DNA of 41,966 nucleotides from Candidatus Krumholzibacteriota bacterium (lineage in GTDB: Bacteria; Krumholzibacteriota; Krumholzibacteriia; JAJRXK01): NCBI GenBank assembly GCA_024276305.1, contig JAJRXK010000041.1:1-41966 (forward strand), in the 5' to 3' direction. Numbering within the stretch: position 1 is the first letter of the stretch; every line of letters starts with the position of its first letter. The notes under the pieces are model-generated. The model was given only the letters and a program-made list of their open reading frames with translations. It did not search any database and was not told where the DNA came from. Both the position numbers and the translations under genes were made by a program. Of this stretch, positions 13,009-30,698 are shown one piece after another.

Positions 13009-16000
13009 TCAGCGCATCACCACGATGCGTCCCATGTTGCTGCGGGCCGCGCGAGTGCCCGCCCCCACTTCGAGACGATAGAAGTAGGTGCCGTTGGCAA
13101 TCTCCGACCCGTCCGACGTGCGCCCATCCCAGGCGAGGCTGAGCTCGCCGCTCCCCAACGACAGCCCGTCGTCTCTCCTCTCGTAGACCATCCGCCCCGA
13201 GAGGTCGTAGACCGTCAGCCGCGCCCACTCTACCGCCTCCGAGGCGCGGGCGACAACGTAGATCGGCTGTCCACCGGCCAGTCGGGCTGGATTGGGCATC
13301 GGGTAGTGGGCCTCGATCACCAGAGGAGCTCCACCCACGGTCCCCGCACTCAACGGAATCGTTTCGGTCGCCGATCCCAGCGAAAGACTGAGCACCTGCC
13401 CGGTCGAAACCTCTGCCCGGGCGTCGAAGATCAAGGTCCAGTCCCGGCCCGAACCCGTCACGGTCACCGGCCCCACGGTCCCCCCGTCCAGGGTCACCGC
13501 GCCGAAGTCCGAGTTCTGGAGGTCGACCGGCGAGCTCAGGCGCACCTCCACCGCGATGGTCTGACCCACAGGAAATCCGGATCCCGCCGCGGGATCGAAG
13601 AGGCTGCCGTCCACGTAGATCTCGTGACCGAGGGTGACATGCCAGGTCTTTCGAGTCGGTCGGGTGTCGGGATAGGATCCGTCATGGATCGAGATCTCCA
13701 CGTCGTAGGTCTGCGGTAGAATGGGAAGGTTCAGATCATAGCTCCGCCGGCGAGGATCGGTGCCTGCCAATGGCTGGAGGAGCCCCGTGGAATCGCGCCC
13801 CTGACTGTCGACGATCTCCAACCGGGAGATTCCGGTCTCGTCGATCGCTTCGAGACGAAGGCTCGCCGTCGTCGCTCCCGCGTCCGCCACCAGATCTGCA
13901 CCTTCACTCAGCGCGCCTCCCGAATTCCACACCCGCAGGCGAGGCGGAGCTGCATCCATCCGCAGCAGAGGATCGCCGAGAAGGTTGTACTGCGCGATCA
14001 TCTCCGATTTTCGGAACACCGAACTGATGCCCACCGTATTGAGTTCGGCTTGGGCCAAGGCCTCACCCACGACCCACTGAGAGGCCAGCGGAGAGGAAAG
14101 CTGCCCCGTGGATCGGCCCTCCGCCCAGAAGACCGACGCGATCTCCTCCATGAACGTCGCATTGGGATTAAGGAACTCGAATCCACTACTGCCATAAGTT
14201 GCGATCGCCCCCTTGCCGGGCAGGGCGAAGAGGTACTCACCAATCGGAGTCCCCACTCGGCCCTCTTCCGCCTGCAGGAAGTCGCTGACATGGCAGCCCA
14301 TTCCGAAGAAGAGGAAGGGCTTGCCGACATTCTGTAGCGCTCCGAGAGCGTTGCGATTGACCATGGTCTCGTGGGCGAGCCGATTGAAGGCCGCGTGGCC
14401 CTGGTAGGAAACCATGAGCCACCCCTGAGAGAGCACTTCGAAGAGCCTTCCCTGACCCCGATTGGCATAGCAACTGGCAACACAGGGAGCGGTGGTGCAG
14501 CCGAGCTCGTCCCGGCAGCCCGAGGTGACCTCGTCCAGGTTGAAGTAGATTCCGCTCTGCAGAGTGTCGAGCGAAGTGCTGATCAGATTGGCGCTGCGTT
14601 CCTGACTGCGCCCGAATTCGACCTCGTCCGAAACGAAACCGTAGGTGCCTTGAGACGTTCCCAGATAATTGCTGCTGTAGGCATCGTCTGCGATCCAGTA
14701 ACTCCGGCGGCGCCAGTCATCACTCGCCCGGGGCTGCTCGTAGGCAAAGATCTTGTCCAGAGCGACCTGCAGCCCCTCGTTGTCCGCGACTGGCAGGCGC
14801 CCCACCAAGAGATCCGCCGTTCGATCGATGCGGTCCGGGAAGTCAGCCCGGGGATTCATGAATGCGTACCACTTGTCCGACGCCAGCAGCTCCGTCACTC
14901 CCAGGAACTGTTGGAGGTGGACTCGGGCCGGAACAAGATTGGGGCCCGCATCGGAGGTGATCTGACGCGCGTCTTCGTTGGCGTACCCGACCAGCAAGAG
15001 CGCTTCCGCTCCCCAGCTCACGTAGGCATATTCCACGAAGTCATGGATCGCCTCGGGGGACTGCAGCCCTCCCGAAAAGTCGTCGTAGATCTGTTGGACG
15101 TCCACATAGCCGACCCGCCACCCGTAGCCGAGATCGTGATCCTGACGCCACTGGACCCAACTCTGCATCTTGTCGGCGAAGACCGCCGGCCCCACCGCCA
15201 ACACCTGAAGATCGTTCGCGGTATCGAAGACCGATGGGATGTTGTCCGTCTCGATGTCCTGATTGCGCAGAACATCCAGCCGAATCAGAGGCGAGGCCCG
15301 AAAACTTCGTTGCTCGCCCGCCACCTGCGGAACATGCAGGGAGAGGGTGAAGGTTCCGTCCCCAGCGTCCACGACATTCTGCGGCGACAGGGTGATGGCC
15401 CTCGGCCTCCGCGGATCGGTGACTTCGAAGAGCAGGAGATCTCCACGATCGAAGCCGGTCGCCTCGATGTCCACATTCACCCCGGTCGCTCCGGTGGAGA
15501 ACTCCAGATCACTGAAGGCGGCCCGGTACATCGAAGCGTAGTCCACGGTGATCCGACCCAGATAGGTTCCCACCCGCGCCGAACTCCCGTTCAGAACGTG
15601 ATCCATTCCCAAACGTACGAACCCATCCGGGAGCGCACTCGCGGGAACTTCGGCTCTCAGCTCGTGCAACACTCTGTAGAGCGCCAGATCCGAGTTGATG
15701 GTCATCAAGTCGATCCGGCCATTCAGACCCTCGAGGTAGAAATCCACGGGGTGAGGAACATTGGTGTTCATCGACCGCGACGTCACGGTCCAGGCCCATC
15801 GCACATTCGAATCGGGAACCGCAGCGAAGACCGGCACCGCGCGCTGCACATTGACTTCGTCCCAATCGTTCCAGTGGTAGCGTTCCACCGTCGGATCCTT
15901 GGGGTTCTGTTGAAAGGCCGCGTCCCCGGTGAAGGTCCTGGTCTTGCGAAACATCGATTGGGGACTGCCCTGAGATGGGCCCAAGGTTTCGACCGGCATT

Positions 16001-17190
16001 CGAGCCCAGGCTCCCCCGGCCGGATCCATCGCCGCCAAGAAGTAGACGTTCGCGGAATTGTAGGAATCCGGGCGCATGGAAGGCAGAGTCATGGCCCGCG
16101 GGAAGTTCGCCCCATCGATGTTGCGGTCGACCCAGTCGTCCTGGGCCGAGAACCCGTAGAAGACGATCACATCCGCCGGATCCACGGGAGAGTTGGGATC
16201 GGGATCACCCACGAAGTACAACGGAACGTCCGCGGTGATCGGCGTGGGATAGGTGGGAGAGTCCGGCGAATCACGGCGCTTCTGGTAGAGTCGAAGGTCC
16301 CGGCGAAGAGTGGAGGGGGGAAGTTCGTGATTGGTGAGCAACGTCGACATCTGGACTCGATGCAATCCCGTTCCGCTCACCCGGAGACGGATCTCGGCGC
16401 TCCGGAGTCGGCTCTTGTCGAAGAGGGGAGTTCCCCACACCGCCGCGCGTCGTAGACCAGAGTCCAGCCCGTCGCTGGCCCAGATCTTCTTCCGCCCTTC
16501 GAGTTCGGGCGGCAGACAGCCCCACTCTCGCGCCAGTTCTCCATTGAGCAGGGACGATTGGAATCTCTGCAGCCCGGGCTTCACCGGGGAATGGCGTCCA
16601 GCGGGTTGGGGGAATCGCACCCGCACCCGGATCTCCGTGGCAACCTCCACCCGACCGGTCGCCGCGTCGTAGAACACCGGAGATACTCGAAGAGGTGCCA
16701 CCCGCTGGCGACGATGGAAGACCGCTTGGCCCAAGCTCACCGCCTCTGCCGCCGTCGTGGAGAAACGATTGTAGCCCGGACCCTCGATGCTGCGTTCGAC
16801 GAGGCGGGGCTCGTCGTCCATGGCCTGGGGATCGATGCTGGGAGTCGAATGAGGCAGCATTCTGCCGCGACCCAAGACCTGACGCCCCAGGATCTCGAAG
16901 TCGATCGAAGCCTCGCCCTCGGGGGGGAGAGCGAACCACCGCGCGGCCCGCGGCAACATGGGCAGTCCCGGGCTTCCGCTCTGGTGCGCGCCATCGATTT
17001 CGACGAGGTACCAGGGGCTCCCCGAAGGATCCGTGCCGGCCCGCATCCACTCCGCTCCGCGGACGGTGAGTCGGACTTCCATCTGCTGGGCGCTGGAGCT
17101 GAGAACCTCCCAGTCGAGCTGGGCCGCAGCCGGTCCGGTGCCCATGGAGAACATGATCAGGACCGCAATGGCCCAGGTCTTTCTCAACAC
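13009..17190 (-). CDS. Secreted gingipain-type C25 cysteine peptidase with FlgD-like C-terminal domain
   Basis: About 1393 residues. The signal peptide is WAIAVLIMFSMGTGPAAAQ. A C25 propeptide-like region follows (VAPLRVSPVFYDAATGRVEV, then VRVRFP). The peptidase domain has the family's catalytic pair: His near residue 932 in YQGHAAFNRLAHE and Cys near 966 in FFGMGCHVSDFLQ, followed by the conserved GAIATYGSSG. The last ~95 residues form a FlgD Ig-like/T9SS-type sorting domain (YDLSGRMVYERRDDG, SGELSLAWDGRTSDG, GTYFYRLEVG) ending NMGRIVVMR. Family members are secreted endopeptidases or PorU-like sortases; a PorU-like role cannot be excluded, but PorU itself usually lacks this C-terminal domain. 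The GTG at 17190 is favoured because GAGGAGGG lies ahead and the signal peptide follows. It stands alone between its promoter (17353-17382) and murQ. Confidence 0.88.
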   Translation of the reverse strand: MLRKTWAIAVLIMFSMGTGPAAAQLDWEVLSSSAQQMEVRLTVRGAEWMRAGTDPSGSPWYLVEIDGAHQSGSPGLPMLPRAARWFALPPEGEASIDFEILGRQVLGRGRMLPHSTPSIDPQAMDDEPRLVERSIEGPGYNRFSTTAAEAVSLGQAVFHRRQRVAPLRVSPVFYDAATGRVEVATEIRVRVRFPQPAGRHSPVKPGLQRFQSSLLNGELAREWGCLPPELEGRKKIWASDGLDSGLRRAAVWGTPLFDKSRLRSAEIRLRVSGTGLHRVQMSTLLTNHELPPSTLRRDLRLYQKRRDSPDSPTYPTPITADVPLYFVGDPDPNSPVDPADVIVFYGFSAQDDWVDRNIDGANFPRAMTLPSMRPDSYNSANVYFLAAMDPAGGAWARMPVETLGPSQGSPQSMFRKTRTFTGDAAFQQNPKDPTVERYHWNDWDEVNVQRAVPVFAAVPDSNVRWAWTVTSRSMNTNVPHPVDFYLEGLNGRIDLMTINSDLALYRVLHELRAEVPASALPDGFVRLGMDHVLNGSSARVGTYLGRITVDYASMYRAAFSDLEFSTGATGVNVDIEATGFDRGDLLLFEVTDPRRPRAITLSPQNVVDAGDGTFTLSLHVPQVAGEQRSFRASPLIRLDVLRNQDIETDNIPSVFDTANDLQVLAVGPAVFADKMQSWVQWRQDHDLGYGWRVGYVDVQQIYDDFSGGLQSPEAIHDFVEYAYVSWGAEALLLVGYANEDARQITSDAGPNLVPARVHLQQFLGVTELLASDKWYAFMNPRADFPDRIDRTADLLVGRLPVADNEGLQVALDKIFAYEQPRASDDWRRRSYWIADDAYSSNYLGTSQGTYGFVSDEVEFGRSQERSANLISTSLDTLQSGIYFNLDEVTSGCRDELGCTTAPCVASCYANRGQGRLFEVLSQGWLMVSYQGHAAFNRLAHETMVNRNALGALQNVGKPFLFFGMGCHVSDFLQAEEGRVGTPIGEYLFALPGKGAIATYGSSGFEFLNPNATFMEEIASVFWAEGRSTGQLSSPLASQWVVGEALAQAELNTVGISSVFRKSEMIAQYNLLGDPLLRMDAAPPRLRVWNSGGALSEGADLVADAGATTASLRLEAIDETGISRLEIVDSQGRDSTGLLQPLAGTDPRRRSYDLNLPILPQTYDVEISIHDGSYPDTRPTRKTWHVTLGHEIYVDGSLFDPAAGSGFPVGQTIAVEVRLSSPVDLQNSDFGAVTLDGGTVGPVTVTGSGRDWTLIFDARAEVSTGQVLSLSLGSATETIPLSAGTVGGAPLVIEAHYPMPNPARLAGGQPIYVVARASEAVEWARLTVYDLSGRMVYERRDDGLSLGSGELSLAWDGRTSDGSEIANGTYFYRLEVGAGTRAARSNMGRIVVMR

Positions 17191-17352
17191 GACAATCCAA
17201 CCCTCCTCGTGGGGCAACGACGACCATCGCCCGGTCACCGCGTGGCAGAACAGAACGGGCACTCTCCCGAAGCACAGCTCATCGACACGAGCCGTAGAAT
17301 CGGAAGATCAGGGAGGGAGAGGGCAGAAGAACCCGAGTTGGCTGGCCTATCG

Positions 17353-17425: not shown

Positions 17426-17451
17426 AAAAGAGGGGCTCCAAAGAGCCCCTC
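17426..17451 (-). terminator. Terminator after secreted protein gene 17508-18179
   Basis: Perfect 9-bp stem GAGGGGCTC/GAGCCCCTC (17430-17438 and 17443-17451) with a 4-nt loop. Read on the minus strand it is followed by TTTTGCG. Confidence 0.85.
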
Positions 17452-17507
17452 TCGCATCGATGTAGTCGTAGTCCGGGAAGTTGATCCCGAAGGTCAGATC
17501 TTCTGCA

Positions 17508-18179
17508 TCAGTCCCCGAAATTGGCCTTGATCGCTCCCCAACTCGGGGTCTCGACGGGAGTGATGCAATTGTTCACACAATTCACCACCGCGGGCCGCAC
17601 CACCGCAAAGGGACGGAGACACTCCGTGCCCCCACCGGTGGCCAGATTGATGCACTCGCCCACGTCGATATTGTCGTTGAAGCCCGCTGCAGGCGGGTTG
17701 AAGCTGCTCTGAGAAGCCTGTCCGAGCTCCAGGAGCAAATCCGTCGGGGCAGCTCCGCCGAAGAAGACGATCGAGTACTGGACCAGATCGATCGGAGTGG
17801 TGTTGGCAATGATCGCGGTGGTAAGGCCCACCAAGAAATCGGTATTGGGAGGAGTCCCCAGATTCAGCGCGACATTGCGGATGGTGGCTTGGGCGATCAA
17901 GAAGCTCGAAGGGATGGTGAGTCCGGCCTCCCACGCCCGCAGTCCGGTGCTGGCATTGAGCGACGGCCGTCCGATATCTCCATAGTCCAATTCGGCCAGA
18001 ATGAAGAGATCGAAAGGTGTGCCCGGAACCACAGTGATGTTGGGCATATAGGCGGTGCCATTCCCGGAGACCGAGAGAATCCCCATGGTCTGACCCGGAG
18101 TGGAACCCTGGGCGAATACCGACGCGGCGCTGAGGGTCACCGTCAGCATCACAAGAGCCACGATAGCGACTCGTTTCAT
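17508..18179 (-). CDS. Secreted hypothetical protein P1 of the S(F/W)GxVK family
   Basis: 223 residues from the ATG at 18179, preceded by an excellent GGAGGAAAC. The signal peptide MKRVAIVALVMLTVTLSAASVFAQ has a clear Ala-x-Ala-type cleavage site. The mature protein is beta-rich with no known domain. It has cysteines in the pattern GECIN...GGTEC...VNCVNNC, suggesting disulfides. It ends PSWGAIKANFGD, matching the C-terminal motif of the three related genes upstream (TSFGGVKARF twice and TSFGAVKGLY once). It is the most divergent member. Function is unknown; secretion to the periplasm or surface is the only safe inference. It has its own terminator and a weak candidate promoter at 18341-18369. 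Confidence 0.85.
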   Translation of the reverse strand: MKRVAIVALVMLTVTLSAASVFAQGSTPGQTMGILSVSGNGTAYMPNITVVPGTPFDLFILAELDYGDIGRPSLNASTGLRAWEAGLTIPSSFLIAQATIRNVALNLGTPPNTDFLVGLTTAIIANTTPIDLVQYSIVFFGGAAPTDLLLELGQASQSSFNPPAAGFNDNIDVGECINLATGGGTECLRPFAVVRPAVVNCVNNCITPVETPSWGAIKANFGD

Positions 18180-18540
18180 GTTTCCTCCTTCAAAGATCGC
18201 GAATCCTCGCGTTGGCTGCCGCTCGGGATTCGAAGGCCAGCCGCATGAGACGGTCGAGGGGAGACACCTTCTGCCCTCGATTTCGAACCGAGTTTGGAAC
18301 CAGCGCACTCGAACACTCCAAGCAGCGCGCCAGCAAACCTTGGGTACCGAGAATTCGCGATGACGTCAAGAATCAATCCGAGAGCCGAATCCAATCCTCC
18401 GCCCCCGAACCGGGCGGTTGCGTCGCGAATCGGTGCACACAGGACCAATATAGGGGGTGAGGGAGGGAAAAGAAAGCCCCAATCCGGTCACTTTTCTCGA
18501 TTCGCGGGGCGAATTGCGCAGTTCTCGACGCCCTCGACGC
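18180..18540. other. Leader/intergenic region upstream of P1
   Basis: 361 bp without a credible gene. It contains the P1 ribosome site next to 18179 and one candidate promoter (18341-18369). The remainder shows no repeat or RNA structure I can support. Confidence 0.6.
18341..18369 (-). promoter_or_regulatory. Weak candidate promoter for P1
   Basis: TTGACG (18369-18364), 17-bp spacer, TACCCA (18346-18341) on the minus strand. The -35 is good and the -10 is poor. Confidence 0.3.
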
Positions 18541-18574
18541 AAAAAAGAGGGGCGCCCGTGGGGCGCCCCTCTTT
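18541..18574 (-). terminator. Terminator after P2
   Basis: Perfect 13-bp stem AAAGAGGGGCGCC/GGCGCCCCTCTTT with a 5-nt loop. On the minus strand the T-run continues as TTTTTTGCG. It lies 22 bp after the P2 stop. Confidence 0.9.
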
Positions 18575-18595
18575 CCATCGTTCTCGAAAAAACGA

Positions 18596-19186
18596 CTAGA
18601 ACCGAGCCTTCACCCCACCAAAGCTGGTGGACTCGGTGGCCACGGGGCCACCATCGGTGGCGTTGAGCACGAGGCAGCCATCGGGGTGAGCCGGCGAACC
18701 GTTCTGGGCAACACCGAAGGGCACCAGGGTGTCGGTGCAGTCGGAGAGGCCAGGGACGGCCGGGCTGAACGAACTATTGGAGAAGGGTCCGATGCAGATC
18801 GTCGCATCCGCGGGCGGCGGAGTGAAGGACGCGGCGGCATAGGTGGCCAGCACCACAACGCCATTCCCGTCGACACAAGCGCCGGTCGAAGCGGCGACAT
18901 CGGTGTTCGTTCCGAAGTTGGTGGGAAGGGGGCCAACGAGAGTAAGCGACTGAACCAGGTATCCGATGTCATTGGTCAGGCTGTACTCGATGGCCTTGAT
19001 CCCGGTGACGAGGTCGAAGCCGACGACGTAGAAGTTGAAGAAGCCGGGGGCGACGACCATTGTGGATTGCGTACCCGCGGTATCGGCGAAGACACCAACG
19101 TCTCCAGCCTGGGGTTGAGCGACGGCCAAGACCGAAGAGAAAGCCACCACGCTGACCGCGAGGGCGAGAATCGCAATTTTCTTCAT
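18596..19186 (-). CDS. Secreted hypothetical protein P2 of the S(F/W)GxVK family
   Basis: 196 residues with signal peptide MKKIAILALAVSVVAFSSVLAVAQ and a GAGGA ribosome site. The mature part begins GDVGVFADTAGTQST, continues with FYVVGFDLVTGIKAIEY and GPLPTNFGTNTDVAA, and contains cysteines in TGACVDGNG, TICIGPF, LSDCTDTL and PDGCLV, consistent with two disulfides. It ends TSFGGVKARF. It is a close paralog of P3 at 19989-20576: long blocks such as GPLPTNFGTNTDVAA and GPFSNSSFSP are identical, and the nucleotide sequences also align closely. No known domain is recognised. Each gene has its own terminator, so they are probably separately transcribed units rather than an operon. Confidence 0.88.
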   Translation of the reverse strand: MKKIAILALAVSVVAFSSVLAVAQPQAGDVGVFADTAGTQSTMVVAPGFFNFYVVGFDLVTGIKAIEYSLTNDIGYLVQSLTLVGPLPTNFGTNTDVAASTGACVDGNGVVVLATYAAASFTPPPADATICIGPFSNSSFSPAVPGLSDCTDTLVPFGVAQNGSPAHPDGCLVLNATDGGPVATESTSFGGVKARF

Positions 19187-19329
19187 GGGTAAAATTCCTC
19201 CATAGCGACGATGTCGAAGCAAGAATATCCCCAGCCGTGGCCCTCAGCATCAAGCCCGCGACCGGAGGTGGTTGGAGTGGGAGCCAGCAGGGACGCAGGC
19301 GTAACGAACCCTCCCCGATACATTCCTCG

Positions 19330-19358
19330 ACTTTACAGTATTGCCCAATTTGTGTCCA
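19330..19358 (-). promoter_or_regulatory. Candidate promoter for P2
   Basis: TGGACA (19358-19353), 17-bp spacer, TAAAGT (19335-19330) on the minus strand, about 145 nt before the P2 start. The match is moderate. It lies between P2 and the inserted element at 19434, so insertion did not separate it from the gene. Confidence 0.4.
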
Positions 19359-19433
19359 CATCGGAATCGCTTCCGCCCCTGGGAGCCACGATTCGCTCCC
19401 ACGAGGACCGATCCGGACAGATCCTGGTCACAA

Positions 19434-19858
19434 AGTTGTGTCTCCGAAATTGTTGATGATCGAGTGCGAGAAGATCCTGGCTGCGTGAGGGGCCGGGGTC
19501 TTCTACTCGACGGGCAGGGTACTCTGGAGCGGCTCGAGCATGCCCTTCTCCATGGCCTTGGGGTCGGGGCGATCGGGGCGTTTCTGCCGGTAGGTGGTCG
19601 AGAAGGACTGAGTCGACATCGTGACACCACATGCCCGGCAATGGAACCGCTGTACGGATCTCCGGTCACTCTTCCGGGTGTAGAAGTCGACCTTGCGGAC
19701 CGGCCAGGGACCACCCATGTGATTGTGGTACTTGCACTTGGGGTTGGTGCAGCGGGGTGGGAGCCAGCCCCTCGGGATCCGGTCGACCATGTCCACGATC
19801 CTGGACAGCGCACGGACAGGCTCAACAACTATTCATCAACAATTTCCGAGACACAACT
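19434..19858 (-). mobile_element. Short transposon-derived element, copy 2 (non-autonomous, MITE-like)
   Basis: 425 bp, bounded by 24-bp inverted repeats at 19434-19457 and 19835-19858 that match those of copy 1 (2757-3186) except for one base. It lies in the opposite orientation to copy 1 and has an uninterrupted 97-codon zinc-ribbon frame. Differences from copy 1 include four bases and one base missing near the frame's 5' side. The nine bases on either side (TGGTCACAA and AAAGGGTGC) do not match, so no target duplication remains; the insertion is older, or flanks were rearranged. It sits between the near-duplicate genes P2 and P3. Confidence 0.85.
19503..19796 (-). CDS. Transposase-derived zinc-ribbon protein, no catalytic domain
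   Basis: 97 residues from a GTG at 19796 (MDMVDRIPRGW...). CTNPKC and FHCRACG form a four-cysteine zinc ribbon, followed by MSTQSFSTTYRQKRPDRPD, a segment I associate with the N-terminal DNA-binding part of IS1/IS1595-like transposases. After residue ~80 the sequence jumps to a short tail (AMEKGMLEPLQSTLPVE) with no DDE residues. The likely origin is an in-frame internal deletion of a full transposase that kept the DNA-binding ribbon and the extreme C-terminus; this is inference. If translated, it could bind the inverted repeats and act as a repressor or be mobilised in trans. There is no strong ribosome site. Confidence 0.65.
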   Translation of the reverse strand: MDMVDRIPRGWLPPRCTNPKCKYHNHMGGPWPVRKVDFYTRKSDRRSVQRFHCRACGVTMSTQSFSTTYRQKRPDRPDPKAMEKGMLEPLQSTLPVE

Positions 19859-19926
19859 AAAGGGTGCAGATGCCCCATCTATCGACAGGCCCCAAGCTCC
19901 CGGCCGATCCGGATTCCCAGCCGACG

Positions 19927-19961
19927 CGAAGAGCCCCCGTCCGCAGGACGGGGGCTCTTCG
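19927..19961 (-). terminator. Strong hairpin after P3
   Basis: Perfect 16-bp stem CGAAGAGCCCCCGTCC/GGACGGGGGCTCTTCG with a 3-nt loop, 27 bp after the P3 stop. It lacks a T-run on the minus strand, so termination may need a factor, or the hairpin may protect the mRNA 3' end. Confidence 0.7.
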
Positions 19962-19988
19962 ATCGAAACGAATTCGAACGGATCCGGC

Positions 19989-20576
19989 CTAGAAACGGGC
20001 CTTCACACCGCCGAAGCTCGTCGACTCGGTGGCCACGGGGCCACTGTCCGTGGCGTTGACCACGAGGCAACCATCGGGATGGGCGCCATTGCCGTTCTGC
20101 GCCACACCGAAGGGACGCAGGGTGTCGGTACAATCCGAATACCCGGGCGTCGGCGGACTGAACGAGCTGTTCGAGAACGGACCGATGCAGATCGTGCTGT
20201 CATCGGCAGGCATGGCGAAGGTCGCGGCCGCATAGGTCGCGAGCACCACCACACCGGCCCCATCCACACACGCACCGGTCGCGGCGGCCACGTCGGTATT
20301 GGTCCCGAAGTTGGTCGGCAGCGGACCCACAAAAGTGGCGGACTGGACCAAGAACCCGATGTTGTCGGTCAAGCCCCACTCGATGGCCTTGAGGCCCGGC
20401 GTCAGCTCGAAGCCCACGACGTAGAAGGTGAAGAACCCAGGAGTCACCACCAGGGTCGACTGCGTACCGGCGGTGTCGGCGAACACGCCCACATCTCCGG
20501 GTTCTGCTTGCGCAAACGCCAGGCTGCTCATCGCGAGGATGCCCAGGGCCAGCACAGCTACCATTAGCTTCTTCAT
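19989..20576 (-). CDS. Secreted hypothetical protein P3 of the S(F/W)GxVK family
   Basis: 195 residues with signal peptide MKKLMVAVLALGILAMSSLAFAQ. GGAGG lies 12 bases before the ATG, a slightly long spacing. The mature protein GDVGVFADTAGTQST... parallels P2 almost residue for residue, including cysteines in TGACVDG, TICIGPF, YSDCTDTL and PDGCLV, and ends TSFGGVKARF. P2 and P3 are therefore a recent duplication. The N-terminal and strand-rich middle parts also align with P4, though much more distantly. The product is secreted but of unknown function. Stop codon is TAG, as in P2. Confidence 0.88.
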   Translation of the reverse strand: MKKLMVAVLALGILAMSSLAFAQAEPGDVGVFADTAGTQSTLVVTPGFFTFYVVGFELTPGLKAIEWGLTDNIGFLVQSATFVGPLPTNFGTNTDVAAATGACVDGAGVVVLATYAAATFAMPADDSTICIGPFSNSSFSPPTPGYSDCTDTLRPFGVAQNGNGAHPDGCLVVNATDSGPVATESTSFGGVKARF

Positions 20577-20751
20577 GAGAGGTAGAATCCTCCGATTCAG
20601 AGTTCGAAGCACACGAGAGAAGTGCAATTCTCCCAAGGATTTGATTGGCGATCGTCTCCGGCGAGAGCGAGAGGTGGTTGGGTGGCGACGGAGATCCCGT
20701 TCACCACCCTCCCTACGATCGCACAACTAGATCACGGGTCGAAACCAGCGA

Positions 20752-21306
20752 CTAGTAGAGGCCCTTCACTGCACCGAAGGAAGTCGCCTCATTGGCCACC
20801 GGCGGACCGATGAACAGAGACGGACCCAGGTTGCAGGTACTCAGCTGGGCGGCACAGGAATTGATCTGCGCTCCCAGCGGATCGGCCGAGGTATTCGCCT
20901 ACACGGACACGGTACGGCTGGCGCTGGTGGGGAAGGGGATCTGCACTTCATAGTCGGTGACTAGGATCGGCAGACCGCCAAAACCGATGGCGCACTCGCC
21001 CAGACCCACATTGTTCCCCGTCGCTTCGCTCACGTTGAACCGACCACCACTCGGACCATAAGTCTGAGAAATGATGAAGATCTCGGTGTTCAGACCGGGA
21101 AGATCGAGGTCGTAGGCTACCGCGTTGACCGCGTTCTCAGCGAAGAGCACAACGTAGATGTGGAAGTTCGTGCCCTGAGTGGGTATGAACGAACTCACAG
21201 TCCCGTTGGCGTCAGCATAGACTCCCACCGTGCACTGAGCAGCGGCGTAACCGGCAGCCATCACGACGAGCATCGCGACCACCACCATCATTGTCCTCTT
21301 GAACAT
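20752..21306 (-). pseudogene. Secreted protein P4 of the S(F/W)GxVK family, interrupted by an in-frame TAG
   Basis: An ATG at 21306 with a clear AAGGAGAG site starts MFKRTMMVVVAMLVVMAAGYAAAQ, a signal peptide, followed by CTVGVYADANGTVSS, equivalent to GVFADTAGTQST in P2/P3. Later come GLGECAIGFGG and LPILVTDY. After 135 residues there is a TAG at 20899-20901. The same frame continues 48 codons to a second TAG at 20752 and encodes the family C-terminus, ending NEATSFGAVKGLY. Conservation of the downstream part implies the full-length gene was functional until recently. Explanations are a nonsense mutation, a sequencing or assembly error, or stop-codon readthrough. TAG is a normal stop in P2, P3, nagZ and rpmB here, so genome-wide recoding is unlikely. 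Confidence 0.75.
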
Positions 21307-21426: not shown

Positions 21427-22026
21427 TTAGGGACAAACCTCGAACAGGTGGACACCAAATTCACCGACGTCGGAGAGATTGATGACGCCATCCGGCACGA
21501 GGTCAGAGCGGAAGTTGTAAGCACCGCCGAAGTCCGCGCCGAAGATGCCGATGTCAATCAGGTTGACCTCGAGGTCTCCGTTCATGTCCGGGCTGTTCAT
21601 GTCGATCGCAAGCGCAGGACCAGCCAGAGGAGTTCCTGCCAGATAGACCTGAACACCGGCCTGGGTGAAGCCGCCACCAGCGATGGCACCGCTGATCGTG
21701 GTCGCGCCAGCTGCGTCAGTGTTGAAGTCCGCCACGCTACCGCCCTTACACAGGGAGATCGAACCGTCACCGGTGTCGTCGACCCAGATGTCTTGGAACG
21801 GATAGCCAGCAATCGCATTACCATTGACGTCGAGGACGGTGACCGAAATGGTCGCGCCCTTTTCCGCAAGGGTCTTGCCGAGACCGGCAGGAGTCACGAG
21901 AACCGTGCCACCGGCCGAAGTAGCGGTACTGAGGGTATCATCCGGAATGCCAGCAGCGGCCAAGCTCGAGAGCCCAAGCAGCATGGTGCCGGCAACGGCG
22001 AGACTCAGGAGTCTCTTGTTGATCAT
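21427..22026 (-). CDS. Secreted protein P5: Ig-like domain plus dockerin-like repeats
   Basis: 199 residues from the ATG at 22026 with GGGAGG upstream. The signal peptide is MINKRLLSLAVAGTMLLGLS. The middle (ISVTVLDVNGNAIAGYPFQD, WVDDTGDGSISLC, TTISGAIAGGGFTQAGVQVY) has the beta-sandwich pattern of bacterial Ig-like domains. The C-terminus holds two dockerin-type repeats: DMNGDLEVNLIDIGIFGADF, with a good Asp-x-Asn-x-Asp calcium loop start, and a degenerate DLVPDGVINLSDVGEFGVHL. It ends EVCP. Dockerin-like repeats bind calcium and can anchor to cohesins; no cohesin is seen here. It differs from P1-P4 and lacks their C-terminal motif. A good promoter precedes it at 22149-22178. Confidence 0.82.
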   Translation of the reverse strand: MINKRLLSLAVAGTMLLGLSSLAAAGIPDDTLSTATSAGGTVLVTPAGLGKTLAEKGATISVTVLDVNGNAIAGYPFQDIWVDDTGDGSISLCKGGSVADFNTDAAGATTISGAIAGGGFTQAGVQVYLAGTPLAGPALAIDMNSPDMNGDLEVNLIDIGIFGADFGGAYNFRSDLVPDGVINLSDVGEFGVHLFEVCP

Positions 22027-22301: not shown

Positions 22302-22378
22302 TGGTGGGCGAAACAGGATTCGAACCTGTGACCCCCTGCTTGTAAGGCAGGTGCTCTAACCAACTGAGCTATTCGCCC
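22302..22378 (-). tRNA. tRNA-Val (anticodon TAC)
   Basis: 77 nt with acceptor GGGCGAA/TTCGCCC, D arm CTCAGTTGGTTAGAG, anticodon stem CCTGC/GCAGG with loop CTTACAA (TAC at 22342-22344), T arm ACAGGTTCGAATCCTGT, discriminator A and an encoded CCA. Its first ten bases overlap the end of the small membrane-protein gene at 22369-22542, so both lie on one transcript. Confidence 0.97.
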
Positions 22379-22596: not shown

Positions 22597-23616
22597 CTAC
22601 TGTCTTCGGTCCCGGCGCGCCCGACGGTAGTCACGGACGGCCTGACGGTGCTCCTCCCAGGTCTCGCTGAAGCGATGACGACCCTTTCCGTCCGCCACGA
22701 AATACATGGCCCGAAAGTTCGGTTCGGGCCAGAGCACTGCTCGAATCGACGACAACCCGGGGCTGTTGATGGGCCCTGGCGGCAAACCGGGATGACGGTA
22801 GGTGTTGTACGCGGAATCGACTTCGAGGTCCCGGAATACCAGCCGCTGTCCCTCTTTTCGGAGCGCGTAGGCCACCGTCGGGTCGGCCTCGAGTTTCCAT
22901 CCCCGGCGCAGGCGATTGAGGTAGACCGCGGCGACCCGAGGCCGCTCATCATCATGGATGGCCTCGGCCTCCACGATCGACGCCAGAGTCACCACCTCTT
23001 GGAGAGAGAGGTCGATCTCGTCGAGCCGCCGCCTCGAAGTCGAGTCCAGATGAGCGGCGAAGGTCCGCAAGATCTGCTCGAGGACCGTCCCCACCCCGAC
23101 CCCAGCTGCGAAACGGTAGGTCTCGGGGAAAAGATAGCCTTCAAGGCTTTGGCCTTCGGGCAAGTCGAGGATCCGCCGCAACCGCGCAGGAGGGGCTTCG
23201 ATCCACTGGACCAGCCGCCCCGGATCCAGGCCCAGGGTATCGGCCAGCACCTCGGCCGCACGCTCCCAGCGCCAACCCTCCACCAGAGTGACCTGCCGCA
23301 GGCGCTGCGGACCACTCTGGAAGAGGGTCAGAAGGCGGAGCGGCGAAGCTCCCACCGGCACGTCGTAGTCGCCGGCGCGGATCGGACGGCGGTCGAAGTA
23401 CAGTCTCTGCGCCAACCTCAGACGCCAACTCCCTCTCAACAGCCCCTGCTCCTCCAGGGCTCGGCCCACCTGCGCCACCGACGCGCCGGCCGAAATCTGG
23501 AAGGGTCGAGTCTGGCCGGTGGGATGATCGACCACCAGTTCGGCGCGCAGCCACCCCGCGCCCACCACCACCGCTAGGATCCCGCTCAGCCAGAGGAGAG
23601 AGGAGCGACCGCGCAT
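22597..23616 (-). CDS. mltG: Endolytic murein transglycosylase MltG (YceG-like)
   Basis: 339 residues with one N-terminal membrane anchor (LLWLSGILAVVVGAGWL). MltG cleaves nascent peptidoglycan strands at the inner membrane and is thought to set glycan length. The YceG domain is clear: GYLFPETYRF (160-169), VVTLASIVEAEA (208-219, predicted catalytic Glu216), RVAAVYLNRLRRGWKLEADPTVAYAL, YNTYRHPGLPPGPINSPG and the C-terminal YFVADGKGRHRFSETWEEH. The ATG at 23616 has GGAGGGA upstream and shares its A with the TGA of ruvX (TGATG), so translation is coupled. Upstream codons in frame belong to the ruvX overlap. Confidence 0.96.
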   Translation of the reverse strand: MRGRSSLLWLSGILAVVVGAGWLRAELVVDHPTGQTRPFQISAGASVAQVGRALEEQGLLRGSWRLRLAQRLYFDRRPIRAGDYDVPVGASPLRLLTLFQSGPQRLRQVTLVEGWRWERAAEVLADTLGLDPGRLVQWIEAPPARLRRILDLPEGQSLEGYLFPETYRFAAGVGVGTVLEQILRTFAAHLDSTSRRRLDEIDLSLQEVVTLASIVEAEAIHDDERPRVAAVYLNRLRRGWKLEADPTVAYALRKEGQRLVFRDLEVDSAYNTYRHPGLPPGPINSPGLSSIRAVLWPEPNFRAMYFVADGKGRHRFSETWEEHRQAVRDYRRARRDRRQ

Positions 23617-24035
23617 CAGTCTCCCTCCTTCACATCTTCGCGGCCGTCGAGCCACCCTTGGAGAATCAGTGCTGCAGCGAGAGCATCCCGGTCGGCTCGC
23701 TCGTGCCGTCGACCCCTCAGAAGGCGTCGAGCTTCGGCCGTGGAGTAGCGCTCATCCACCAATTCCACCGGAACCGAAAGGCGTTGCGCCAGCTTGCGGG
23801 CCAACACTTCGCTGCGCACGGCCGACGCCCCGTGCTCCCCCATCTGCGTGAGTGGCAGGCCGACGAGAACCCTTTCCGCGCCGTGGTGGTCGCAGAGTTG
23901 GGCGATGCGGTCGAGCAGGGAACGATCTCGGCGGCGATCGTGGGTCTCGAGAGGCGTGGCCAGAATGCCCGCGGGGTCGCAGATGGCGATGCCGGTGCGC
24001 CGCTCCCCCGGGTCGAGAGCCAGCACCACTCCCAC
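23616..24035 (-). CDS. ruvX: Putative pre-16S rRNA nuclease / Holliday-junction resolvase-like YqgF
   Basis: 139 residues, the normal YqgF length, with an RNase H-like fold: LALDPGERRTGIAICDPAG at the N-terminus, VLVGLPLTQMGEHG, and DERYSTAEARRLL containing conserved acidic residues, ending DALAAALILQGWLDG. YqgF matures the 5' end of 16S rRNA; a Holliday-junction role was proposed earlier. I chose the GTG at 24035, eight bases after the stop of the kinase gene, because family members begin just before the LALDPG motif; its ribosome site is poor. The mltG-ruvX order is a common arrangement. Confidence 0.93.
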   Translation of the reverse strand: MGVVLALDPGERRTGIAICDPAGILATPLETHDRRRDRSLLDRIAQLCDHHGAERVLVGLPLTQMGEHGASAVRSEVLARKLAQRLSVPVELVDERYSTAEARRLLRGRRHERADRDALAAALILQGWLDGREDVKEGD

Positions 24036-24043
24036 GGCCGCGA

Positions 24044-24496
24044 TCAGTCGGAGTCGCTGGCCGACGGTGCGGCCTCGCGAATCGCCAGAGGAATCTTGAC
24101 CAGTCGAACCCCGAACTCCGTGTCGCGTCGCAAGAATGTCAGTTCGTCGCAGAAGGTGCTCATCATGTAGAGGCCGCGGCCGCGCTCCTGCATGAGATCC
24201 TCGGGCATCTTGGAAAAGTCCCGGTCGCCGGGGTCGAAGCCCTGCCCCTCGTCCCACACCGTTACCTGGAACCTCTCGGCCGTGAACTCCAACACCACCC
24301 GCGCTTTGCGCTCTTCCTGGAGCCCATTGCCGTGCTCGATGGCGTTGGTGCACGCCTCGATCACCGAAGTCGAAAGCTCATCGAGCTCACTCTGCTCGAA
24401 GGGCAATTCACTGCCCACCTCTTGGATCACCGCATCGGGGACCCCGAGGAACATGTGAGAGCTGGGAATGGTGATTTCGATCCGCACGTCATCCAA
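24044..24496 (-). CDS. RsbW/SpoIIAB-type anti-sigma serine kinase-like ATPase
   Basis: 150 residues with the Bergerat ATP-binding fold: STSVIEACTNAIEHGN (N box), VWDEGQGFDP (G1 box) and QERGRGLYMM (G2 box). Such proteins bind a sigma factor and phosphorylate an antagonist protein; that role follows from the family, and no sigma factor is present here. The STAS antagonist gene ends 34 bp upstream, forming the usual antagonist/kinase pair. The start at 24496 has no obvious Shine-Dalgarno and may rely on coupling. The PP2C phosphatase that normally completes the switch is absent from the window. Confidence 0.92.
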   Translation of the reverse strand: MDDVRIEITIPSSHMFLGVPDAVIQEVGSELPFEQSELDELSTSVIEACTNAIEHGNGLQEERKARVVLEFTAERFQVTVWDEGQGFDPGDRDFSKMPEDLMQERGRGLYMMSTFCDELTFLRRDTEFGVRLVKIPLAIREAAPSASDSD

Positions 24497-24530
24497 CCGT
24501 CGGGTGGAATTCGTCGAGCGCAGGGCCCGA

Positions 24531-24875
24531 CTAGTCAGTGGCGAAGCTTTGCACAGCCTCTTCCTCGTCCTTGTACGAGTCGAAGACGGAATGAAGTTTC
24601 GTCACCATGAAGATGCTCTCGATGCGTTCGGACACGTTGAGCAGTTTCATCTCGCCATTGTTGCGCTTGAGCGTGGTGTATCCGGAAATCAAGATCCCCA
24701 GACCGGTACTGTTCACCCAGGTCACCCGGCTCAGATCCACCAGCACTCGCGTACGCTCCTCGTGCACGAGAGTCTTCAGCGTACTGCTGAAGAGCTCGGA
24801 ATCCGGCCCTCCCATGATCTTTCCTGAGACCTCGAGGATGGTCACTCCGTCGCGGGCTCGTTCCTTGATCTTCAT
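24531..24875 (-). CDS. STAS-domain anti-sigma factor antagonist (RsbV/SpoIIAA-like)
   Basis: 114 residues covering a single STAS domain: VTILEVSGKIMGG, RVLVDLSRVTWVNSTGLGIL, GEMKLLNVSERIESIFMVT. The serine in NSTGLG is at the position phosphorylated by the partner kinase in this family. The unphosphorylated form would bind the kinase at 24044-24496 and release its target. The ATG at 24875 is preferred; an upstream in-frame methionine gives a 20-residue extension without domain character. Spacing to the rluD-type gene upstream is about 95 bp, so a separate promoter is possible. Confidence 0.93.
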   Translation of the reverse strand: MKIKERARDGVTILEVSGKIMGGPDSELFSSTLKTLVHEERTRVLVDLSRVTWVNSTGLGILISGYTTLKRNNGEMKLLNVSERIESIFMVTKLHSVFDSYKDEEEAVQSFATD

Positions 24876-24970
24876 CGCCACCCATATCCTTTGCTCGCAA
24901 TGGAATCCAGAACGCGGCATCGCTGCCCCGGGCATCAGGTATGGAATCTAGTGAACGGGCCAGGTGGTGT

Positions 24971-30340: not shown

Positions 30341-30698
30341 TGGTGGAGGCGGCGGGAATCGAACCCGCGTCCGAAAGCGGCCAGCCGCCGACGTCTACGT
30401 GTGTAGCCCCCGGAAAACTTCGCCTGGGGTCCCTCCAGGGACCACGGTCAACCCCACGCTAGCCCCATTGTTTCTCGACGCTTTCCCTGTGGCTACGGGT
30501 CCACGCCCAGCTTCCGGAAGATGACGCCTCGATTGGGAAGTCCCCGAGGCCCGACTTCCCCGAGACGACTGCCACTATTTAGGCAGCGAGAGCCATAGGC
30601 TCGTCAATTGTTGTTTTCCCACCAGTTTAACGAGAATAGGTGAGCTCCTCGACACGCAGTCAACGACCTATCCACCCCCGTCGAAACCTTTCGCCCCC
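30341..30698 (-). ncRNA. ssrA: Transfer-messenger RNA
   Basis: 358 nt. The 5' end GGGGGCGAAAGGTTTCGACG and the 3' end (GTTCGATTCCCGCCGCCTCCA then CA) form the tRNA-like acceptor arm GGGGGCG/CGCCTCC, with CCA encoded. Within it, a short frame ends GAGCCTATGGCTCTCGCTGCC-TAA (30579-30581), giving a proteolysis tag ending in Met-Ala-Leu-Ala-Ala. The resume codon is probably GGG at 30618-30620 (tag GKTTIDEPMALAA); GGT one codon earlier is possible. It rescues stalled ribosomes together with SmpB, which is not in the window. It lies 80 bp upstream of the Rrf2 gene. Confidence 0.95.

What the first reader, a model, noticed from the sequence alone, without database searches (positions are those of the whole stretch)
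17508..21306. Family of small secreted proteins defined by a C-terminal S(F/W)GxVKxx(F/Y) motif
Four consecutive genes (P1 17508-18179, P2 18596-19186, P3 19989-20576, P4 20752-21306) encode signal-peptide proteins of about 185-223 residues ending SWGAIKANFGD, TSFGGVKARF, TSFGGVKARF and TSFGAVKGLY. P2-P4 also share (G)V(F/Y)AD..GT near the N-terminus and a (G)xC...G.(V/L)xx(L/V)(A/V)T(Y/D) segment; all have several cysteines. No domain is recognised. Extreme conservation of the last ten residues against divergent cores is what one expects of a sorting, assembly or processing signal. Each gene keeps its own terminator, so they behave as an expanded family rather than an operon. The adjacent C25 peptidase may be functionally linked; that is inference.
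Basis: partly seen in the sequence, partly recalled or inferred. Interest (0 to 1): 0.8.

Follow-up and report, generated by a model that had tools for sequence, protein, structure and literature searches.

The report
Short C-terminal sorting tail, five phyla
Hundreds of otherwise unrelated exported proteins in Krumholzibacteriota and at least four other little-studied bacterial phyla end in the same roughly 15-residue tag, which looks like a previously unnamed address label that can stand in for the known type IX secretion signal and is linked by gene order to its own protease.

Summary
Observation: real, with one correction. P1-P3 are intact and end as described. P4 has an in-frame TAG at codon 136, so its tail lies behind a stop. 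Interpretation: right in its core and larger than proposed. The tail, consensus V(A/P)T(E/D)xx-(S/T)(W/F)Gx(V/I/L)K(A/S/G)x(F/Y)(R), is a modular C-terminal signal, not a family trait. In fetched loci it sits on 130 proteins in 54 unrelated core clusters, 120 with a Sec-like signal peptide. Terminal perfect matches number 154, against 2 in 974,276 internal positions. It occurs throughout Krumholzibacteriota (the window's phylum), in 39/41 Eisenbacteria, 38/38 Fermentibacterota and 79/79 Poribacteria genomes, and in Coatesbacteria, up to about 50 per genome with low controls. No NCBIfam or Pfam model was found for it. Similar cores (malectin, cohesin-like, beta-helix) occur with either this tail or a type IX secretion (T9SS) type A C-terminal domain; none seen with both. 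Tail genomes encode T9SS parts. P1-P4 lie in a conserved locus: MltG, tRNA, dockerin-like gene, tail genes, C25 peptidase; that C25 is a PorU paralogue in its own clade. Best reading: a sorting signal functionally equivalent to the T9SS domain. Cleavage by the C25 is inference.

The parts
17508..18179 (-). P1: Sec signal peptide, cohesin-like core, tail PVETPSWGAIKANFGD
   Evidence: ORF and alignment; joins the P2/P3 family by iterative HMM
17511..17558 (-). C-terminal tail of P1 (16 residues)
18596..19186 (-). P2: Sec signal peptide, cohesin-like core, tail PVATESTSFGGVKARF
18599..18646 (-). C-terminal tail of P2
19989..20576 (-). P3: Sec signal peptide, cohesin-like core, tail PVATESTSFGGVKARF; 77% identical to P2
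   Evidence: AlphaFold2 model pLDDT 55.7; best PDB fold matches are cohesins
19992..20039 (-). C-terminal tail of P3; residues 177-195 have pLDDT below 50, with a predicted short helix 188-192
20752..21306 (-). P4: same family, interrupted by in-frame TAG at 20899-20901; tail PVANEATSFGAVKGLY lies behind the stop
21427..22026 (-). Secreted protein with two dockerin-like Asp/Asn-rich repeats at the C-terminus, ending in CP; conserved neighbour of the tail genes
   Evidence: synteny in 6 genomes and further loci; an orthologue hits Dockerin_1 at E 0.0018, below the cut-off
13009..17262 (-). Second-kind (PorU-paralogous) C25 cysteine peptidase with FlgD-Ig / T9SS type A-like C-terminal domain
   Evidence: PF01364 1e-56, FlgD_ig 1.2e-6; NF033707 PorU 6e-47 but 160 bits against cut-off 420; own clade; QGHA...GMGC dyad
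22597..23655 (-). MltG (YceG), conserved upstream flank of the locus
   Evidence: synteny
22302..22378 (-). tRNA-Val(tac), flank of the locus
17429..17452 (-). hairpin after P1, terminator-like
18544..18574 (-). hairpin after P2, followed by T run, terminator-like
19927..19961 (-). hairpin after P3

Best explanation
The last ~15 residues are a modular C-terminal sorting signal. Proteins carrying it are exported to the periplasm by Sec (signal peptide: shown by sequence). The tail, predicted to be an exposed segment with a short Ser/Thr-capped amphipathic helix (W/F, V/I and F/Y on one face, a nearly invariant Lys on the other), is then read by an outer-membrane or cell-surface machine (inferred). 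It does the job that the ~75-residue Ig-like type A C-terminal domain does for ordinary type IX secretion (T9SS) cargo in the same genomes, so the likely route is the T9SS translocon (inferred from interchangeability and co-occurrence). The PorU-paralogous C25 cysteine peptidase encoded next to the conserved tail-gene cluster is the best candidate to cut or transpeptidate it (inferred from synteny; cleavage at the conserved Lys would fit a gingipain-like specificity but is untested). At this locus the carriers are cohesin-like proteins beside a dockerin-like protein, suggesting a small surface complex (inferred, weaker).
For: Modularity: 130 tail proteins fall into 54 core clusters once signal peptide and tail are removed, with malectin, lamin-tail, PPC, beta-helix, PMP-repeat, Calx-beta, NHL and NCBI 'choice-of-anchor' D and R domains. 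Terminality: 114/130 end exactly at F/Y, the rest within 7 residues; 154 terminal against 2 internal perfect matches. Signal peptides: 118/136 tail ORFs against 148/518 other ORFs with the same heuristic, Fisher p 9e-36. Conservation outside the search pattern: V/I at -15 in 104/130, A/S/G at -3 in 125/130, R/L at -2 in 104/130; Lys was never the mismatched position in 18 one-mismatch tails. Interchangeability with the T9SS domain: malectin core 43% identical, tail form beside CTD forms in one contig; cohesin-like core 40%; beta-helix core 29% over 437 aa; no tail protein matched TIGR04183 among the listed families. T9SS present: SprA in 69/69 Krumholzibacteriota and 33/41 Eisenbacteria over cut-off; 14/14 tail genomes sampled carry 40-150 type A domain matches. 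C25 link: 21/40 loci around second-kind C25 hold tails, nearly all directly upstream; many of the others hold relaxed tails; against 1 tail in 373 kb around true PorU. Second-kind C25 is one clade of 35, support 100, with the His/Cys dyad kept in most.
Against: No experiment. Every described T9SS signal (types A, B, C) is a region of about 70-100 residues or more (PMC10202324); this tail is ~15. SprA was not found in three tail-bearing Eisenbacteria MAGs, G083, G090 and G099, though G090 and G099 carry 48 and 80 type A domain matches, so MAG gaps are likely. T9SS and tail are both near-universal in these phyla, so their co-occurrence is confounded by ancestry. Synteny with C25 holds for one conserved locus; the dozens of other tail genes per genome are scattered. 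One neighbour tail has Arg in place of Lys (L243). Both AlphaFold2 models are of low confidence, so the helix is only suggested.
Confidence: 0.6

Rival explanations
1. The tail is a docking or retention peptide: the protein crosses the outer membrane or stays periplasmic by another route, and the uncut tail binds non-covalently in a groove of a surface or envelope receptor, as dockerins bind cohesins.
For: Helix-like spacing W-8, V/I-5, F/Y-1 with a conserved Lys looks like a groove-binding ligand; the locus also encodes cohesin-like and dockerin-like proteins.
Against: The free or near-free C-terminus is strongly conserved and the tail swaps one-for-one with a T9SS export domain, which argues for export or sorting. 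No receptor was found.
Confidence: 0.2
2. The tail is recognised by the BAM or autotransporter machinery, as a beta-signal at the end of an outer-membrane strand.
For: It ends in F or Y like outer-membrane proteins, and the carriers are exported.
Against: The fixed Gly-7/Lys-4 and 3-4 residue spacing do not fit the alternating beta-signal pattern (own knowledge of that pattern); carriers are soluble extracellular modules such as malectin, LTD and PPC, not barrels; an Arg after F/Y is common in whole families.
Confidence: 0.05
3. The tail is a periplasmic proteolysis tag or maturation propeptide read by a protease at the C-terminus, with no sorting role.
For: A C25 peptidase is adjacent in the conserved locus.
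Against: Dozens of unrelated, apparently functional surface-type proteins per genome carry it; degrading them all makes little sense. Interchange with a T9SS domain is unexplained.
Confidence: 0.1
4. The motif is only a conserved end of one protein family expanded by duplication.
For: P2 and P3 are tandem duplicates and about 77 collected sequences, some duplicated between loci, share the cohesin-like core.
Against: 54 separate core clusters and many unrelated Pfam domains carry the same tail.
Confidence: 0.02

Closest known systems
T9SS type A C-terminal domain (TIGR04183 / PF18962, here mostly FlgD_ig PF13860)
   Same: C-terminal, on Sec-exported extracellular proteins, abundant per genome, similar cores found with either signal; the review PMC10202324 reports that the last 22 residues of one type A domain sufficed to export GFP and that conserved Lys in its last motif matter, so a short Lys-bearing signal is not absurd
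   Different: ~15 residues instead of a ~75-residue Ig-like fold; no match to the TIGR04183 model; predicted helix or disordered, not a beta-sandwich
PorU, the T9SS sortase (NF033707), and the C25 gingipains
   Same: the adjacent peptidase is a C25 with PorU as best NCBIfam and PDB match and keeps the His/Cys dyad
   Different: well below the PorU cut-off, in its own clade, and most genomes have a separate true PorU
PEP-CTERM/exosortase, GlyGly-CTERM/rhombosortase, MYXO-CTERM/myxosortase, LPXTG/sortase
   Same: modular C-terminal tag on many unrelated exported proteins, including NCBI choice-of-anchor modules
   Different: no transmembrane helix and no basic cluster after the motif; the stretch before the motif is acidic
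Cohesin-dockerin pairs
   Same: P-family core matches cohesin folds best; the neighbouring gene has dockerin-like repeats
   Different: model confidence is low; no Pfam cohesin hit; no sign of a cellulosome

Membership tests
T9SS type A cargo | N-terminal Sec signal peptide | tested here: met
   118/136 tail ORFs by heuristic against 148/518 controls
T9SS type A cargo | C-terminal Ig-like domain recognised by TIGR04183 / PF18962 | tested here: not met
   TIGR04183 is absent from the complete NCBIfam list; PF18962 is absent from the 25 of 28 Pfam families shown
T9SS type A cargo | genome encodes the SprA translocon | tested here: met
   69/69 Krumholzibacteriota; 33/41 Eisenbacteria over cut-off; Fermentibacterota and Coatesbacteria MAGs positive, Poribacteria only distant
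T9SS type A cargo | signal removed by PorU and protein attached to lipopolysaccharide | not testable with these tools
   needs proteomics
Tripartite sortase/exosortase-type C-terminal signals | motif, then transmembrane helix, then basic cluster at the C-terminus | tested here: not met
   motif is terminal; positions -25 to -10 are mostly net negative
PorU (window C25) | NF033707 above curated cut-off of 420 bits | tested here: not met
   159.9 bits; the true PorU of this genome is at G000:C1
PorU (window C25) | C25 catalytic His and Cys | tested here: met
   YQGHAA...FFGMGC found by pattern
Cohesin (P1-P3 core) | cohesin fold | tested here: inconclusive
   top nine Foldseek matches are cohesins, best E 3.5e-3, but model pLDDT is 55.7; profile search of PDB sequences found none
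Dockerin type I (21427-22026) | PF00404 above gathering score | tested here: not met
   window copy no hit; orthologue L096 18.9 bits against 22.9

The most novel reading that the evidence does not exclude
The tail is a fourth, minimal class of type IX secretion signal: a helix-forming ~15-residue peptide that replaces the Ig-like domain and is handled by a dedicated PorU paralogue, in use across at least five phyla (Krumholzibacteriota, Eisenbacteria, Fermentibacterota, Poribacteria, Coatesbacteria).
Probability: 0.35. Interest if true: 0.9.

Novelty: new variant of a known kind. Interest (0 to 1): 0.8.

Why it matters
It assigns a likely location and pathway to a large class of unannotated exported proteins (up to about 50 per genome) in several uncultured phyla, supplies a one-line motif for annotation, and poses a direct test of how small a type IX secretion signal can be. 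It also gives the second, PorU-like C25 peptidase of these genomes a candidate substrate set.

Tried and rejected
A first genome-wide pattern missed Leu codons TTG and was widened. The strict terminal pattern suggested patchy distribution in the phylum; allowing Arg before the stop showed 67/69 genomes, so the patchiness was an artefact of my pattern. Apparent Spirochaetaceae hit L178 rejected as chance: no exported ORF and no SprA. Second AlphaFold2 job on a Fermentibacterota carrier was uninformative, pLDDT 40. Presence/absence profiling for a receptor failed because tail and SprA are both near-universal. Sequence-profile search of the core against the PDB gave nothing significant. The simple terminator scan missed the hairpins that the inverted-repeat search found. 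Labels in the tree: four rows tagged second-kind inside the PorU clade come from PorU control loci (L264, L273, L281), and L256, which I had fetched as second-kind, branches at the base of the PorU side; the first four are my labelling, L256 is a wrong pick.
Full report
Where it is. The window is contig C24 of a 3.55-Mb MAG, 97.9% complete. Relatives in the same held phylum match named GTDB records of Krumholzibacteriota: contig lengths and positions identify G006 with JAJDAC, G004 with JAFGBK and G008 with JAOZPE. So the host is taken to be a krumholzibacterium (inference from record titles).

Checking the observation. P1, P2 and P3 are as described. P4 is not: TAG at codon 136 separates its body from the tail. 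The motif has no other copy in the window.

The tail is modular. An own-genome profile search already hit the tails of unrelated proteins. A DNA pattern for (S/T)(F/W)GxhKxx(F/Y)-stop gave 47 copies in G006, 15 in G007, 17 in G005 and 11 in G004, with no reversed-pattern hits in any of these. I fetched about 100 flanks. The 130 carriers had Sec-like signal peptides (120/130), median length 217 aa, and the tail at the very end in 114. Cores fall in 54 clusters. Pfam and NCBIfam name typical extracellular modules and no tail model. Scanning all ORF ends of the fetched loci gave 154 perfect and 18 one-mismatch tails, against 2 and 9 in 974,276 internal positions. The loci were chosen because they hold a tail, so the terminal count is enriched by design; the rarity inside ORFs is not. 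Gly and Lys were part of the first pattern, so their invariance there is by construction; in the one-mismatch set Gly changes 7 times and Lys never. In syntenic neighbours read without the pattern, one Lys-to-Arg change and several changes at Gly and at the aromatic positions occur.

Distribution. A GTDB-wide scan of 84,980 species with a strict pattern returned 45 stretches, in Krumholzibacteriota, Fermentibacterota, UBP1, Coatesbacteria, Poribacteria, Eisenbacteria and NIOZ-UU57 (some titled Latescibacterota, Fibrobacter or Gemmatimonas, although G059, G060 and G062 group in the window's phylum), plus one chance hit. Counting by phylum: Krumholzibacteriota 67/69 genomes with the Arg-extended form, about 755 matches against 2 controls; Eisenbacteria 39/41, about 680 against 1; Fermentibacterota 38/38, about 400 against 15; Poribacteria 79/79, mostly 2-14 per genome against 0-3, at most 5. 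Sums are mine from the tables.

Link to type IX secretion. SprA is in 69/69 Krumholzibacteriota, 33/41 Eisenbacteria over cut-off and in Fermentibacterota and Coatesbacteria; Poribacteria have a distant one. All 14 sampled tail genomes carry 40-150 type A domain matches. These are confounded by ancestry, so the swap test carries more weight. The malectin protein L051:3004-3681 ends in the tail; its contig neighbours on both sides hold about 43%-identical malectin modules and end in FlgD_ig / TIGR04183. A cohesin-like core shows the same swap at 40% identity (L119 against L160), and a beta-helix core at 29% over 437 residues (L120 against L112). No carrier was found with both signals.

Link to the C25 peptidase. 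The window C25 is a PorU relative below the PorU cut-off. PorU-family matches are in all 69 genomes; most have a true PorU plus second-kind C25s. A tree puts 35 second-kind enzymes, the window's included, in one clade with support 100. Around 40 such genes, 21 loci hold tails, nearly all directly upstream; many others hold relaxed tails (SWGAIKGMLE, SFDNIKAMYR, TWTQLKNLFD) with the dockerin-like gene and often MltG; a few show no tail (L250, L252, L255, L256) or are cut by a contig end. Around 20 true PorU genes there is one tail in 373 kb. The arrangement MltG, tRNA, dockerin-like, 1-6 cohesin-like tail genes, C25 is therefore old in the phylum.

Core fold. From its sequence pattern and the dockerin-like neighbour I expected a cohesin-like core; Foldseek of the P3 model then gave cohesins as its first nine matches, best E 3.5e-3. 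With pLDDT 55.7 this is suggestive only. In the model the tail is the least confident segment.

What is known. Literature in the library describes type A, B and C T9SS domains and PorU sortase action (PMC10202324). I found no description of this motif, but the library lacks most subscription papers and all preprints.

Verdict. Modular C-terminal sorting signal: about 0.85. T9SS-equivalent or T9SS-routed: about 0.5. Processing by the second-kind C25: about 0.35. Shown: modularity, terminality, export signal, distribution, swap, synteny. Inferred: machine, cleavage, receptor, helix.

Noticed in passing
window 19434-19858: 26-nt, 96% complementary inverted repeats bound a ~425-bp insert between the tandem duplicates P2 and P3, with a small ORF (19503-19796, minus) bearing Cys pairs like a transposase zinc ribbon; no Pfam hit. 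Probably a decayed insertion element.
   Followed up: partly
window 20899-20901: In-frame TAG in P4 with the rest of the frame, tail included, still conserved; recent nonsense mutation or MAG error.
   Followed up: partly
window 23616-24935: RuvX, an RsbW-like ATPase and a STAS protein sit upstream of MltG; a similar ATPase/STAS-type neighbour is seen in some other loci.
   Followed up: partly
many of the 69 genomes: Besides true PorU and the second-kind C25, a third C25 class of ~1600-1730 aa recurs in many genomes; not studied.
   Followed up: no
window 30341-30698: tmRNA gene with tag DEPMALAA.
   Followed up: no
L150, L172, L188, L174: Records titled Fibrobacter, Gemmatimonas or Latescibacterota carry contigs that match genomes grouped here in the window's phylum; the titles look mislabelled.
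   Followed up: no
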